Shown here: positions 8,362 to 36,683 of the stretch, one piece after another
Position numbering within the stretch: the stretch's first letter is position 1
How the letters are laid out: each line of letters starts with the position of its first letter
Position numbers and translations under genes: made by a program
The notes under the pieces: generated by a model
Database searches by the model: none
What the model was told of the DNA's origin: nothing
What the model saw: the letters and a program-made list of their open reading frames with translations, nothing else
From: Anaerolineales bacterium
GTDB taxonomy: Bacteria > Chloroflexota > Anaerolineae > Anaerolineales > UBA11579
Assembly: GCA_019637675.1 (NCBI GenBank)
Contig: JAHBVE010000002.1
Location: 333,797-397,796 of the forward strand
Length of the DNA: 64,000 nucleotides
Reading direction: 5' to 3'

Positions 8362-9024
8362 ATGGATGTACGTATTGAAGCCAGCTGGAAGGAAAAGCTG
8401 GCCGAGGAGTTTGAGAAGCCGTATTTTGGGCAACTAGCCGAGTTCGTGCGGGCGGAATACAAGCAATTCACCATCTACCCGCCCGGCGGCAAGATCTTCA
8501 ATGCGTTCGATGCCTGCCCCTTCGACAAGGTGAAGGTAGTGATCCTGGGGCAAGACCCGTATCACGGCCCCGGCCAAGCCAATGGGCTGTGTTTCTCGGT
8601 CAGTGAGGGCGTACCACTGCCGCCCTCGCTGCAGAACATCTACAAGGAACTCAAAGACGATCTGGGTACCCCGCCGCCCGCCAGCGGCGACCTGGAGCGC
8701 TGGGCGCGCCAAGGCGTGCTGCTGCTCAACGCCACGCTCACCGTGCGCCGGGGTGCAGCCGCCAGCCACCAGGGCAAAGGCTGGGAGGAGTTCACCGATG
8801 CAGCCTTGCGGATGCTATCGCAAGAACGCGAGCATCTGGTGTTCATCCTGTGGGGCGCATATGCGCGCCGCAAAGGCGCCTTCATTGACCGCATGAAGCA
8901 CCTGGTGATCGAGTCGGCCCACCCTTCGCCGCTTTCAGCGCACAATGGTTTCTTCGGCAGCAAGCCGTTCTCGAAGACGAATGAGTATTTGACACAGTAT
9001 GGGGTTGAGCCAGTAAGTTGGTAA
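8362..9024 (+). CDS. ung: Uracil-DNA glycosylase, family 1
   Basis: 220 residues. It removes uracil from DNA in base-excision repair. The water-activating motif GQDPYHGPGQANGL carries D65, and the late HPSPLSAHNGFFG is the DNA-minor-groove/catalytic His loop; VLLLNATLTVR and FILWGAYAR are also family-typical. The ATG at 8362 is preferred over a TTG two codons upstream, because TATACT (8349-8354) lies seven bases before it, predicting leaderless expression, and there is no Shine-Dalgarno. Confidence 0.95.
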   Translation: MDVRIEASWKEKLAEEFEKPYFGQLAEFVRAEYKQFTIYPPGGKIFNAFDACPFDKVKVVILGQDPYHGPGQANGLCFSVSEGVPLPPSLQNIYKELKDDLGTPPPASGDLERWARQGVLLLNATLTVRRGAAASHQGKGWEEFTDAALRMLSQEREHLVFILWGAYARRKGAFIDRMKHLVIESAHPSPLSAHNGFFGSKPFSKTNEYLTQYGVEPVSW

Positions 9025-9030
9025 AAGCCT

Positions 9031-9095
9031 CACTACAAAGACACACAGGGCACAAAGTAAGAAAACTTTGTGCCTTTTGTGTCTTTGTGGTTAAT
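9031..9095. repeat. CCACAAAG/CTTTGTGG dispersed palindrome, copy 1
   Basis: Arms CTACAAAGACACA and TGTGTCTTTGTGG flank inner arms CACAAAGT and ACTTTGTG. Related copies lie at 34949-35030 and 35457-35561. This copy is between two convergent genes and so has no downstream gene to drive. Confidence 0.75.
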
Positions 9096-9102
9096 CCTTT
9101 AG

Positions 9103-9942
9103 CTACGCCGTGATCAGCGCGATCGCCAACAGCGCCAGCCCCACCCCGGCCACCTGCAAGCGGCTGAGGTGCTCTTTCTCGATGAAACGGGCCAGCAGCA
9201 CGGTGATGCCCGGGTAGAGCGAGACCAGCACGGCGGCAATATCCAACCGGCCGGACTGCACGGCGCGCAGGAATAGAAAATTGCCCAGCATGTCGAGCAC
9301 GCCAGATCCAATCAGGATGAGGATCGGCAGCTTGGCGGGCAGCTGCATCCGCCGGGTTGCCAGGGCGATGCCGGCCAGCAGCAGGCTGGACGCCAAGCGG
9401 CTGGCAGCCAGCGGCCAGAAGGTAGCGCCCGCGCTGATCTGATCCAGCGTGGTGAAGAACAAGCCAAAACCCAGCCCAGCGATGATGCCGAAGCGTAGAC
9501 CAGAACTCTGGCTGTGTTCGCCGCCGCGCGGCGAGAGCAGCCAGATGCTGACCAGCGCCAGGGCAAAGCCCCACAGCTGCTGCTGAGGCGGCATGCCAGT
9601 GCTGAACGCGGTGACCAAAACCGGCACCATGGCGCCCAAGGCGGCGGCCACGGGCGAAACTACACCCATGCGCCCAACGGCGAAACCGTGCAGCATGGAC
9701 ATAAAGCCGACCGTGCCCACCAGGCCACCCAGCACGCCCCAACCCAGATCGGATAGCGAGGAGAGCGGCTCACCGATGATGAGCGCGCCGACCAGAGCGG
9801 CCAGGAAGCCGATCGGCAGCGAGATGAGCAGAGTAAGCAGCGCGCCGATGCGACGCGCGCCGAGTCCGCTGACAAAATCTCCGCTGCCCCAGGTCAGAGC
9901 GGCGGAGAGGGCATACATGATCGAGGTTGCGAGGGCGTTCAT
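9103..9942 (-). CDS. EamA/DMT-superfamily transporter
   Basis: 279 residues with about ten hydrophobic helices in two five-helix halves, the EamA (drug/metabolite transporter) layout. The start MNALATSIMYALSAALTWGSGDF and the second-half pattern DMLGNFLFLRAVQSGRLDIAAVL, SLYPGITVLLA are typical. It probably exports a small metabolite or amino acid; the substrate is unknown. No strong Shine-Dalgarno or leaderless -10 is visible. It ends next to the palindromic repeat shared with ung. Confidence 0.85.
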   Translation of the reverse strand: MNALATSIMYALSAALTWGSGDFVSGLGARRIGALLTLLISLPIGFLAALVGALIIGEPLSSLSDLGWGVLGGLVGTVGFMSMLHGFAVGRMGVVSPVAAALGAMVPVLVTAFSTGMPPQQQLWGFALALVSIWLLSPRGGEHSQSSGLRFGIIAGLGFGLFFTTLDQISAGATFWPLAASRLASSLLLAGIALATRRMQLPAKLPILILIGSGVLDMLGNFLFLRAVQSGRLDIAAVLVSLYPGITVLLARFIEKEHLSRLQVAGVGLALLAIALITA

Positions 9943-33294: not shown

Positions 33295-34425
33295 ATGGAC
33301 CCCAAACGCTTCCACGATCTGGATACCCCTGAACGAATTCTGCTCGGCCCCGGCCCCAGCGAGATGCCCGCCCGCGTGCTGCAGGCAATGGCGATGCCGG
33401 TCATCGGCCATCTGGACCCGGCCTTTTTGCAGATCATGGATGATGTGCAGGAGTTGCTGCGCTTTGTCTTCCAAACCAAGAACCGCCTGACCATTCCGGT
33501 CTCGGGCACCGGCAGCGCCGGCATGGAAGCCGCGCTCAGCAACCTGATCGAGCCCGGCGACCGCGTCCTGATCGGCATCATCGGATACTTCGGCGAGCGC
33601 ATGTTCAACATGGCCGGCCGCTACGGCGCCACGGTGGACCGCATCGAGGCGCCCTGGGGCCAGGTGCTGGACGTGGACGCGGTCAAGAAGCAGCTCAGCC
33701 AGCACAAGTACAAGCTGCTGGCCGTGGTGCATGGTGAGACCTCCAGCGGCGCGCAGCAGCCCAACATCAAGGAGCTGGCCGCCGCGGCCCACGAGGCCGG
33801 CGCGCTGTTCGTGCTCGACACGGTCGCTTCTCTGGGCGGCGTGTCCGTTGAAGTCGACAAGTGGGACGTGGACGCGGCCTTCAGCGGCTCGCAGAAGGCC
33901 ATCTCCGCTTCGCCCGGCCTAGCCCCGCTCACCTTTGGCCCGCGCGCCGAGAAAGCCCTGGCCGACCGCAAGGTGGGCGTGGGCAACTGGTACCTGTCGC
34001 TCGACGAAGTGCACAAGTACTGGGGCAAGGAGCGCACCTACCACCACACCGCCCCCATCCAACTGAACTACGCCATGCGCGAGGCGCTGCGCATCGTGGC
34101 CGAGGAGGGTCTGGAAGCCCGCTTCGCTCGCCACCAGCAGAACGCCGAAGACCTGTGGAAGGGCGTGGAAAACCTGGACATGGAGATGCTGGTGGCGCGT
34201 GAGCACCGCCTACCCACCGTGACCGCGGTCAAAGTGCCGCCCACCGCATCACACGACCATGTGAAGAATCACCTGCTGGCCGATTACGGCATCGAGGTGG
34301 GCGCCGGCCTCGGCCCGCTGAAGGGCCAGATCTGGCGCATTGGCCTGATGGGCCACAGCAGCCGCAGGGAATATGTCACCCTGGTGCTGGCCGCCATCCG
34401 CGAGATCCTGGAAAAGGCCAAGTAA
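33295..34425 (+). CDS. Class V aminotransferase (alanine-glyoxylate/serine-pyruvate type)
   Basis: 376 residues. The PLP lysine lies in GSQKAISASPGLAPL; VSGTGSAGMEAAL, VVHGETSSGAQQP and VLDTVASLGGVSVEVDKW are diagnostic of the AGT/SPT group, which interconverts glyoxylate/glycine and serine or alanine with pyruvate. The C-terminus GPLKGQIWRIGLMGHSS is also typical. AAGGAGAG lies upstream of the ATG. A link to serine/glycine metabolism with the gcv operon is plausible. Confidence 0.92.
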   Translation: MDPKRFHDLDTPERILLGPGPSEMPARVLQAMAMPVIGHLDPAFLQIMDDVQELLRFVFQTKNRLTIPVSGTGSAGMEAALSNLIEPGDRVLIGIIGYFGERMFNMAGRYGATVDRIEAPWGQVLDVDAVKKQLSQHKYKLLAVVHGETSSGAQQPNIKELAAAAHEAGALFVLDTVASLGGVSVEVDKWDVDAAFSGSQKAISASPGLAPLTFGPRAEKALADRKVGVGNWYLSLDEVHKYWGKERTYHHTAPIQLNYAMREALRIVAEEGLEARFARHQQNAEDLWKGVENLDMEMLVAREHRLPTVTAVKVPPTASHDHVKNHLLADYGIEVGAGLGPLKGQIWRIGLMGHSSRREYVTLVLAAIREILEKAK

Positions 34426-34440
34426 GCACACTTCCCAATT

Positions 34441-34475
34441 ACACGCCGCCAGCAATGCTGGCGGCGTGTTTGTTT
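34441..34475 (+). terminator. Intrinsic terminator
   Basis: ACACGCCGCCAGC-AAT-GCTGGCGGCGTGT, then TTGTTT. Confidence 0.88.
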
Positions 34476-34530
34476 AAAGTCGCTGGCTGGCGGGTTTGTG
34501 GCCGCCCGCCGGCGTGCCTATACTGGGGCG

Positions 34531-34914
34531 GTGAAGACCTCCCAGATCCAACTACCGCCGGATGGTGACTGGCGCGCGACCCTGGCACGCATCCGCGGCG
34601 GCACGCAGGGCCGCGTGATCCTGCTGTGGCCGGAGCGCGGCGAGCCGCGCGCCCCACGCCTGGTGCTGCAGCTAGCCGCCCGCCGCTGCCAGCGCCTGCG
34701 GGTGCCGCTGGCGCTGGTCACCAGCAAGCCGGATATCCGCGCCATGGCGGATGAATTCGGCATCCCCACCTTTGGCAACGCCCGCCAGGCGCGCAAAGAG
34801 AGCTGGGACCTGCCGCCCAAGGTGAGTATGCCCAAGCCGGCCCTGACCATGGAAGGCATCTACCTGCGCATCATGGCCGAGGAGCGCCGGGCGAAGTTGG
34901 CGGGGTTGGAGTAG
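34531..34914 (+). CDS. Small basic protein, possible baseplate-J-type N-terminal domain standing alone
   Basis: 127 residues from GTG. The layout GDWRATLARIRGGTQGRVILL, then a basic strand-helix RLVLQLAARRCQRLRVPLALVTS and MADEFGIPTFGNARQARK resembles a domain seen in Chloroflexota fused to larger cell-surface or baseplate-J proteins; here only that domain is present, with no membrane helix, and a 25-residue tail follows. That family link is from memory and uncertain. TATACT (34519-34524) is six bases before the GTG, fixing the start and predicting leaderless expression. Confidence 0.7.
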   Translation: MKTSQIQLPPDGDWRATLARIRGGTQGRVILLWPERGEPRAPRLVLQLAARRCQRLRVPLALVTSKPDIRAMADEFGIPTFGNARQARKESWDLPPKVSMPKPALTMEGIYLRIMAEERRAKLAGLE

Positions 34915-34916
34915 CC

Positions 34917-34945
34917 GCAGATAAACGTGGATAAACGCAGATAAA
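34917..34945. repeat. GATAAACG short-unit repeat
   Basis: GCAGATAAACGTGGATAAAC then GCAGATAAACC: three near-direct copies of a 10-11 base unit. A related inverted form is at 49681-49751. Confidence 0.55.
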
Positions 34946-34948
34946 CCT

Positions 34949-35030
34949 CACCACAAAGGCACAAAGTTCACAAAGTAAGGCCGCTGTTAACTGCTTTCCT
35001 TTGTGCCCTTTGTGTCTTTGTGGTTAAACT
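34949..35030. repeat. CCACAAAG/CTTTGTGG palindrome, copy 2, carrying the ruvX -10
   Basis: Left arm CACCACAAAGGCACAAAG, right arm CTTTGTGTCTTTGTGG, then TTAAACT. The terminal TAAACT (35025-35030) is eight bases before the ruvX ATG, with TTGTGC 18 bases upstream of it, also inside the repeat. Confidence 0.75.
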
Positions 35031-35038
35031 TGTTATCG

Positions 35039-35440
35039 ATGAGAGTATTAGCCGTTGACCCAGGCGACAAGCGCATCGGCCTCGCCCTGAGCGATGCCAG
35101 CGGCACTATCGCCAGCCCCTTGCAGGTGCTGGCGCACGAGAGCCGCACGGCCGACGCGGCCCGCATCGCTGCCCTGGCGGCGGAGCACGCCGCCGAGCGC
35201 ATCATCGTCGGCCAGGCCTTCGGCGAGGACGGCCAGCCGAACTACAGCGGGCGCAAAGCCGCCCGGCTGGCGGGCGCCCTGCGGGCAGCCACCAGCATCC
35301 CGGTGCAACTGTGGGAAGAGAGCTTCAGCACGCAGGAAGCACTGGCGGCCCGCCGCGCCCTGGGCGCCGGCACGCAGGCTATTGACGCCAGCGCCGCGGC
35401 GGTGATCTTGCAGGGCTATCTTGACGAAAGCAATCGATAG
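35039..35440 (+). CDS. ruvX: Putative pre-16S rRNA nuclease / Holliday junction resolvase-like (YqgF)
   Basis: 133 residues, RNase-H-like fold. MRVLAVDPGDKRIGLALSD holds the first catalytic Asp, ERIIVGQAFGEDG (family VVG.P) the second region, VQLWEESFSTQEA the Glu, and AIDASAAAVILQGYL the last Asp. YqgF matures the 5' end of 16S rRNA. The frame continues upstream into the repeat, but homology begins at this ATG. It precedes mltG, a common pairing. Its apparent -10 is part of the repeat. Confidence 0.92.
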   Translation: MRVLAVDPGDKRIGLALSDASGTIASPLQVLAHESRTADAARIAALAAEHAAERIIVGQAFGEDGQPNYSGRKAARLAGALRAATSIPVQLWEESFSTQEALAARRALGAGTQAIDASAAAVILQGYLDESNR

Positions 35441-35456
35441 AAGATCAAAAAAGCAT

Positions 35457-35561
35457 CACCACAAAGCCACGAAGCACACAAAGAAACCAATTAAGGGCTA
35501 ATTACCAATCTCCAATCCCCGCTTTCGTTCTTTGTGCTCTTTGTGTCTTTGTGGTTAAACT
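35457..35561. repeat. CCACAAAG/CTTTGTGG palindrome, copy 3, carrying the mltG -10
   Basis: Left arm CACCACAAAGCCACGAAG, right arm CTTTGTGTCTTTGTGG, again ending TTAAACT. TAAACT (35556-35561) is six bases before the mltG ATG, the same spacing as the leaderless promoters elsewhere. Confidence 0.75.
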
Positions 35562-35567
35562 TTCTCT

Positions 35568-36683
35568 ATGCGTACCCTCATCGCCCTCGGTTTCGTAACC
35601 CTGCTCGCCTTCCTGGCCTTCCTCGGCGGCAGCACCTTGCTGGCCCGCGCCGAATCCCTGTTCGGCCCGCCCTCGCCGGCCCTGAACGCCTTCCAACGCG
35701 TGCGCATCGGCATGGAGCTGGGCTGGCGCGCTGAGGCGCTGCGCCGCCCAGTGGACCCGGCGGCTGTGCCCGCTCCCTTCATCATCCCCCAGGGCGAAGC
35801 CACCCGCCAGATCGTCTCGCACCTGTGGGAGGACAACCTGATCCACGAGGGCCAGTTGTTCAGCAACTATCTCTTCTACACCGGCAAGGATACGCAGCTG
35901 CAGGCTGGCACCTTTCAACTCAGCGCGGCGATGAGCGCGGTCGAGATCGCCGAGGCGCTGCTCGACCCCACGCCAGAGCATGTGACCCTGGTGATCCTGC
36001 CCGGCTGGCGGCTGGAGGAGATCGCCGCCAGCCTGCCCAGCGCGGGCGTGAATGTCCCGCCCGAGGAATTCGTGCGCCTGGCGAGCTCCACGCCCAACGA
36101 CCTGGCGTTGTACGCCGAGATGCCGATCGGCTCGACGCTGGAAGGCTTCTTGCTGCCGGGCAACTACGAGATCCCGCGCGAAGCGGGCGCCATTGACCTG
36201 CTGCTGACCCTGCTGGACAGTGAGGTCTTCTCAGCGCAAATGACGCCGGAGCTGGTGGCCGGTTTCCAGGCCCAGGGGCTCAGCATCTACGACGCACTGA
36301 TCCTGGCGTCCATTGTCGAGCGCGAATCGGTCATCGCGTCTGAAATGCCGCTGATCGCTTCGGTGTTCCACAACCGGCTGGATATTGGGATGAAACTGCA
36401 AGCCGACCCCACCGTGCAGTACGCGGTGGGCTACGATGACCGCGGCCAGTGGTGGCCCAGCCCGCTCACGGCGGCTGACCTGCAGTTCGACTCGCCTTAT
36501 AACACCTACCTCTACGCTGGCCTGCCGCCCAGCCCCATCGCCGCCCCTAGCGCCGGGGCGCTGCAGGCGGTCGCCTTCCCCGCCGCCTCGCCCTATTACT
36601 ACTTCCAGGCCGCCTGTGACGGCTCCGGGGCGCACATGTTCGCAGTCACCTACGAGGAGCACCTAACCAACAACTGCCACTAG
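35568..36683 (+). CDS. mltG: Endolytic transglycosylase MltG
   Basis: 371 residues. An N-terminal membrane helix (about 5-24) and an extracytoplasmic YceG domain. The catalytic Glu is E251 in LASIVERESVIASEMPLIASVFHNRL; KLQADPTVQYAVG and SPYNTYLYAGLPPSPI complete the signature. It cleaves nascent glycan strands during peptidoglycan synthesis. Expression is predicted to be leaderless from the repeat-borne TAAACT. No recognisable Shine-Dalgarno is present. Confidence 0.94.
   Translation: MRTLIALGFVTLLAFLAFLGGSTLLARAESLFGPPSPALNAFQRVRIGMELGWRAEALRRPVDPAAVPAPFIIPQGEATRQIVSHLWEDNLIHEGQLFSNYLFYTGKDTQLQAGTFQLSAAMSAVEIAEALLDPTPEHVTLVILPGWRLEEIAASLPSAGVNVPPEEFVRLASSTPNDLALYAEMPIGSTLEGFLLPGNYEIPREAGAIDLLLTLLDSEVFSAQMTPELVAGFQAQGLSIYDALILASIVERESVIASEMPLIASVFHNRLDIGMKLQADPTVQYAVGYDDRGQWWPSPLTAADLQFDSPYNTYLYAGLPPSPIAAPSAGALQAVAFPAASPYYYFQAACDGSGAHMFAVTYEEHLTNNCH

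What the first reader, a model, noticed from the sequence alone, without database searches (positions are those of the whole stretch)
34949..35568. Dispersed palindromic repeat supplies the -10 for ruvX and mltG
Seen: copies 2 and 3 of the CCACAAAG palindrome both end GTGGTTAAACT. TAAACT is eight bases before ruvX and six before mltG, with TTGTGC 18 bases upstream in each copy. The mltG spacing equals that of the leaderless genes. Inference: insertion of the repeat created or replaced promoters, a portable leaderless promoter.
Basis: partly seen in the sequence, partly recalled or inferred. Interest (0 to 1): 0.75.

Follow-up and report, generated by a model that had tools for sequence, protein, structure and literature searches.

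The report
Repeat end doubles as gene promoter
In a group of uncultured Chloroflexota bacteria, one end of a scattered palindromic DNA repeat appears to have been taken over as the start signal for genes such as ruvX and mltG, a promoter-on-a-repeat arrangement already known from Neisseria but here built for messages that begin right at the start codon.

Summary
The repeat is real (57 half-copies in the 2.25 Mb genome, 1 backwards-control match). The genome's leaderless genes have a TATAAT-like box 6-7 nt before ATG, so the spacing fits. Comparison supports a promoter role: five of eight same-genus relatives keep TGTATACT before ruvX, which the window lacks; two others carry a solo right half there. 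Four genomes have the element before mltG, four lack it. Protein-found orthologues of two further genes keep GGTTAA(A)(C/G)T while the rest of the repeat has decayed (G005). In a sister family, repeat ends followed by T have an ORF start 6-7 nt on at 14/23 sites, other ends at 5/47 (p=2e-5; 6/12 vs 5/38 after collapsing homologues, p=0.014). Not supported: the TTGTGC -35, absent from native leaderless promoters. In the genus alone, enrichment is not significant after collapsing orthologues (5/41 vs 3/74, p=0.13), most copies are not promoter-placed, and there are no transcript data. Closest known: Correia-element promoters, where insertion completes a partial -10. A new variant of a known kind.

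The parts
34947..35027 (+). full palindromic repeat upstream of ruvX (left arm CTCACCACAAAGGCACAAAGTTCACAAAG, right arm CCTTTGTGCCCTTTGTGTCTTTGTGGTTAA)
35025..35030 (+). proposed -10 box TAAACT for ruvX (TAA from the repeat, completed by flanking ACT), 8 nt before ATG
35039..35440 (+). ruvX (PF03652), proposed leaderless
35456..35558 (+). full palindromic repeat between ruvX and mltG, orthologous in G008, G007, G001
35556..35561 (+). proposed -10 box TAAACT for mltG, 6 nt before ATG
35568..36683 (+). mltG (YceG-like, PF02618), proposed leaderless
9017..9106 (+). copy 1 of the repeat, not near a start codon; ends GTGGTTAATCC (shows that TTAA is part of the repeat and ACT is not)

Best explanation
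The right terminus of the CACAAAG palindrome, (C)TTTGTGGTTAA, is a nearly complete -10 element. When the next bases put a T at the last -10 position (GGTTAAACT, GGTTAACT, GGTTAAAGT in this genus; GGTTAAAT in the sister family) and the end lies about 6-9 nt before a start codon, it serves as the promoter core of a leaderless transcript. Shown: position, spacing, absence of the older ruvX box, presence/absence of the element at mltG, retention of the terminal core while the rest of the repeat decays, and the spacing/next-base enrichment in another family. Inferred: that RNA polymerase starts there, that no -35 is needed, and that ruvX and mltG use it as a main promoter. The left arm and the hairpin seem dispensable for this role, since solo right halves stand at several genes.
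For: Native leaderless boxes in this genus sit 6 nt (31) or 7 nt (13) before ATG of 76 scored (window alone). ruvX: TGTATACT in G008, G007, G005, G001, G004, TACACT+6 in G002; the window has GGTTAAACT+8 and G009/G010 a solo half GGTTAACTT. mltG: element in G000, G008, G007, G001; absent in G002, G005, G009, G010. GNAT-like gene: solo half in 8 of the 13 closest protein-found orthologues; rlmI-like gene in 3 of 10, including G005, where the heptads are decayed but CTTTGTGGTTAAAGTT and TGGTTAACTT remain although G005 has only 1 repeat hit genome-wide. Sister family: with T after GGTTAAA, gap 6-7 in 14/23 ORF-checked sites vs 5/47 (p=2e-5), clusters 6/12 vs 5/38 (p=0.014). Protein-found dprA-like orthologues: CTTTGTGGTTAAAT 6-8 nt before ATG in 3 of 30 read.
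Against: No transcript 5' ends. Genus-only positional enrichment is not significant once similar flanks are collapsed (5/41 vs 3/74, p=0.13), nor is the hexamer-T test (5/6 vs 24/58, p=0.08). TAAACT with 8 nt at ruvX is off the 6-7 optimum. The f11 pattern fixed CTTTGTGGTTAAA, so conservation of that core among its hits is by construction. ruvX could also be read through from the gene at 34531.
Confidence: 0.75

Rival explanations
1. The repeats only landed just upstream of pre-existing -10 boxes; TAAACT is native and the repeat contributes nothing.
For: The genus uses TAAACT as a native -10 (38841). In the rlmI-like gene the box in G006, which has no repeat there, is TAAACT+8, close to the repeat-linked TTAACT of G007.
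Against: TTAA is in the repeat consensus at sites with no gene start; at ruvX the native TGTATACT is absent from the window; the sister-family spacing peak depends on the base after the repeat.
Confidence: 0.13
2. The terminal heptads are an operator for a transcription factor and the genes (ruvX, dprA, ruvC, mutS2, GNAT) form a regulon.
For: CTTTGTGG is kept together with TTAAAT at dprA-like genes in G046 and G367 where upstream heptads are gone; several of the genes look like DNA-processing genes (names recalled from the sequences).
Against: Many other genes are unrelated; in G005 the rlmI-like copy keeps only TGGTTAACTT.
Confidence: 0.06
3. The element acts as RNA, a hairpin ending or stabilising the upstream transcript, and its position near starts is incidental.
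For: Strong hairpins, z -6 to -10; most copies lie between genes without promoter placement.
Against: Solo halves without a left arm stand at starts; no T-run terminator found. Both roles could coexist at ruvX and mltG.
Confidence: 0.06

Closest known systems
Correia repeat enclosed elements (CREE) of Neisseria, 'Black' promoter
   Same: Dispersed inverted-repeat element with a partial -10 at its gene-proximal end that is completed by the flank at some insertion sites (passages of PMC2649163).
   Different: The Black promoter brings its own -35; here none is detectable and the placement is leaderless (6-9 nt before ATG). Different sequence and phylum; solo halves persist here.
Other bacterial MITEs with sigma70-like promoters (MITEAba12, BrickBuilt, QMITE1, SonMITE_1)
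   Same: Small intergenic palindromes reported to carry promoter-like sequences (passages of review PMC10969869).
   Different: The word leaderless does not occur in that review; the parent transposase of this element is unknown.
REP elements with Y1 (RAYT) transposases
   Same: Short palindromic intergenic repeats in many copies.
   Different: No GTAG/CGTC-type tag seen at the ends; the single Y1_Tnp gene in G000 and in G008 is about 7.4 kb from the nearest copy.
TANNNT-driven leaderless genes of bacteria, including Chloroflexi
   Same: A -10 box directly before the start codon (passages of PMC3160421).
   Different: Here the box comes from a dispersed repeat.

Membership tests
Leaderless promoter (TANNNT before ATG) | -10 hexamer about 6-7 nt before the start codon | tested here: met
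   mltG gap 6 (modal); ruvX gap 8 is a minor class, 3 of 76
Leaderless promoter (TANNNT before ATG) | transcript 5' end at or next to the start codon | not testable with these tools
   needs 5'-end mapping
Sigma70 promoter with -35 | TTGACA-like -35 at 16-18 nt | tested here: not met
   TTGTGC is 3/6; native leaderless promoters show TTG at spacers 15-19 in 0-1 of 36 each; scan finds none
Correia element (CREE) | Neisseria-type terminal sequence | tested here: not met
   ends are CTCACCACAAAG / CTTTGTGGTTAA, not the CCGGTACGG ends named in PMC2649163
Correia element (CREE) | partial -10 at the element end completed by the flank | tested here: met
   next-base effect in the sister family; GGTTAA + ACT/CT/AGT in the genus
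MITE | terminal inverted repeats, short, no ORF | tested here: met
MITE | target-site duplication and a parent transposon | not tested
   no transposon with CACAAAG ends was looked for directly; PF05635 loci, a lead, are not flanked by CACAAAG arms
REP/RAYT | tagged REP next to a Y1 transposase gene | tested here: not met
   one Y1_Tnp in G000 and in G008, not adjacent to a copy; tag names from the title of PMC3733652

The most novel reading that the evidence does not exclude
In Anaerolineae, palindromic repeat families with a TGTGGTTAA terminus (CACAAAG, and the CATCTGTGGTTAAAAT end before a methyltransferase-like gene) are a standing stock of ready-made leaderless promoter cores. Promoters of core genes (ruvX, mltG, dprA-like, ruvC-like) are repeatedly swapped for repeat ends, after which the other arm decays and a solo half, finally only TGGTTAA..T, remains as a domesticated promoter.
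Probability: 0.4. Interest if true: 0.7.

Novelty: new variant of a known kind. Interest (0 to 1): 0.52.

Why it matters
It would show promoter turnover by repeat capture at conserved genes, with before and after states in living relatives, and suggest how leaderless promoters can spread: only about ten bases are needed and a repeat delivers them. It makes a general question testable, namely how often intergenic palindromes become promoters, by simple spacing statistics across genomes.

Tried and rejected
Rfam, region 34400-35700: only sub-threshold microRNA matches explained by hairpin shape. Mobiliser: PF05635 genes are often bracketed by other motif-built inverted repeats, but of 60 loci read only L396 had a CACAAAG-like heptad on each side, one apiece; Y1_Tnp is not adjacent. 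Recombination donor for the window's ruvX start codons: the first 15 nt match G009/G010 12/15 and G008 11/15, too little to claim. Genus-only enrichment: rejected as sole evidence after collapsing similar flanks. -35: rejected. The conservation figures are not used as evidence: rows were anchored on the core itself. misread locus orientation (genome-search loci are + strand); redone. A text search for six repeat strings found one eDNA paper on Amazonian fishes, and searches joining Chloroflexi or Anaerolineae with palindromic, REP or MITE terms listed no paper that looked to be about this repeat (listings only).

Full report
What was claimed and what is there. This is exact. The repeat is a genuine dispersed family: 57 half-matches on both strands of the 2.25 Mb assembly against 1 for the backwards control, present in 9 of the 10 other same-genus genomes and in 23 of 61 genomes searched, own included. 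It is polarised: one end is often GGTTAA, the other often GGTGAG or a variant. The bases after GGTTAA at sites away from genes are most often GC, so the ACT that finishes TAAACT is flank.

Is the spacing meaningful? In the window, TATAAT-like hexamers (TANNNT, at least 5/6) before candidate starts of 56 ORFs peak at 6 nt (8) and 7 nt (3). Over the window and 159 loci, almost all of the genus, the counts are 31 at 6 nt and 13 at 7 nt of 76 scored between 3 and 19 nt (orthologues not collapsed). So mltG at 6 is modal and ruvX at 8 is a minor class. Of the 44 at 6-7 nt, 36 remained after dropping those holding TTTGTGG and the like; TTG at spacers 15-19 occurred in 0-1 of 36 at each spacer, so the proposed -35 is not a feature of this promoter class. 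One GNAT paralogue (G000b) has even lost the TTGTGC heptad.

Before and after at ruvX. RuvX was found by protein in 20 of 23 genus and family genomes, 8 of them in the genus. G008, G007, G005, G001 and G004 carry TGTATACT six or seven nt before ATG; G002 has TACACT+6. The window alone has the full CACAAAG palindrome and GGTTAAACTTGTTATCG|ATG; G009 and G010 have only a right half, CTTTGTGCTCCTTGTGTCTTTGTGGTTAACTTGTCGGCG|ATG, identical in both while the sequence upstream differs at a number of places. G008 matches the window in 376 of 400 nt of ruvX, so the window's change is recent on that scale. In G008 another palindrome (CAGATAAACACAGATG...) lies upstream of the native box.

Before and after at mltG. 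The element is present and orthologous in G000, G008, G007 and G001, ending GGTTAAACTTTCTCT, the same, GGTTAACTTTTCTT and GGTTAACTTTTAAAAAC before ATG. In G005 and G002 ruvX and mltG are separated by short spacers without the repeat; in G009 and G010 they adjoin or overlap; in G004 a PF05635 gene lies between.

Other genes in the genus. Repeat ends were collected from the stretches fetched for ten genomes (hits, G003 in part because the listing was cut): 182 ends in 115 clusters of similar flank. GTGGTTAA ends with a coding start 10-17 nt on: 5 of 41 clusters, against 3 of 74 for other ends (p=0.13). Among TGGTTA ends, a hexamer TANNNT occurs in 16 of 19 proximal and 30 of 79 distal ends (p=3e-4, not collapsed); collapsed, 5 of 6 and 24 of 58 (p=0.08). 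In the window's own genome 4 of 15 GTGGTTAA ends (three gene contexts, one duplicated) and 3 of 39 other ends are proximal. So the genus alone is suggestive, not conclusive.

Retention of the core. To avoid choosing by the repeat, orthologues of two genes were found by protein. GNAT-like gene (PF00583): of the 13 closest of 26 matches listed, 8 carry the right half; G005b keeps CTTTGTGGTTAAAGTT with the heptads upstream decayed; G003 has a repeat end GGTTTAAAAGG nearby; the other four lack it, two of them because the gene follows its neighbour directly. rlmI-like gene (name recalled; PUA_3 and Methyltrans_SAM): 3 of 10 carry it (G007, G001, G005), G005 again keeping TGGTTAACTT with decayed heptads. 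G005 has a single repeat hit genome-wide at one mismatch, so retention at two starts is notable. Comparisons between G000 and G008 alone are not informative, as distal ends are also mostly unchanged there.

Independent test in a sister family. In 150 genomes of family f11 (same order), CTTTGTGGTTAAAN{4,24}ATG gave 105 matches (100 distinct strings) in 62 genomes; the backwards control gave about nine by my count of the table. With T next (TGGTTAAAT, like an extended -10), ATG lies 6-7 nt on in 15 of 29 distinct strings against 10 of 71 with A, C or G. After fetching the loci (plus 30) and requiring an ORF of 100 codons, or 60 running off the stretch, the counts are 14 of 23 against 5 of 47 (p=2e-5); after collapsing homologous proteins 6 of 12 against 5 of 38 (p=0.014). 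The 6-7 nt window was set by the earlier calibration. Of the promoter-placed T sites 12 of 14 lack a left arm, of the other sites 19 of 57. The genes look like dprA, a thioesterase, ruvC and others (names recalled from the sequences, no call). A protein search for the dprA-like gene hit 74 of 80 f11 genomes; of 30 loci read, 3 have the exact core 6-8 nt before ATG, 3 have a GGTAAAAA variant, and the others have unrelated upstream sequence, some with ordinary TACAAT or TAGAAT boxes.

Mechanism. I take the repeat terminus as a near-complete -10 (or extended -10) that becomes a leaderless promoter core when the flank supplies the last T and a start codon lies 6-9 nt on. The CREE Black promoter works alike in outline, a partial -10 completed on insertion (passages of PMC2649163), but has a -35. 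The hairpin may in addition mark the 3' end of the upstream transcript; this was not tested beyond folding.

Limits. No RNA data; ORF checks in place of gene calls; the listing was truncated and only part was tabulated. G008 and G007 appear to be CP075367.1 (Anaerolineales ACE_CHL1) and JAJTXV010000001.1 (DTUCFX4), judged by matching coordinates only.

Noticed in passing
L072, L075, L084, L085, L092, L097 (genus) and L369, L374, L392 (other families): PF05635 (23S rRNA IVP-like) genes are often bracketed by inverted repeats built from 7-9 nt motifs (e.g. AAGGATGAAGGATGA, GTCAAAGGTCGAAGGTC), the same architecture as the intergenic palindromes; no null model was run.
   Followed up: partly
L022 minus strand near 1515 (G000:C1 about 522.7 kb) and L174 (G008): A different palindrome family ending CATCTGTGGTTAAAAT (TAGAAT in G008) stands exactly 6 nt before the ATG of a homocysteine-methyltransferase-like gene (name recalled): a second repeat with a TGTGGTTA terminus at a -10.
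   Followed up: partly
L427, L426, L430 upstream of the rlmI-like gene (G000, G008, G002): A TAAACT-like box about 40 nt upstream with a palindrome (CCAATCGATTAATCAATTAGTCGATTGG in G000) between it and the ATG, as if a repeat had split a leaderless promoter from its gene.
   Followed up: no
L062 (G001) ruvX: RuvX of G001 is 57% identical to the window's while its MltG is 77%, suggesting ruvX replacement in that lineage.
   Followed up: no
window 35039-35053: Codons 2-4 of the window's ruvX (AGA GTA TTA) differ from G008 (CGA ATT CTA) and somewhat resemble G009/G010 (AAG GTT TTA); a short recombination tract with the promoter is possible.
   Followed up: partly
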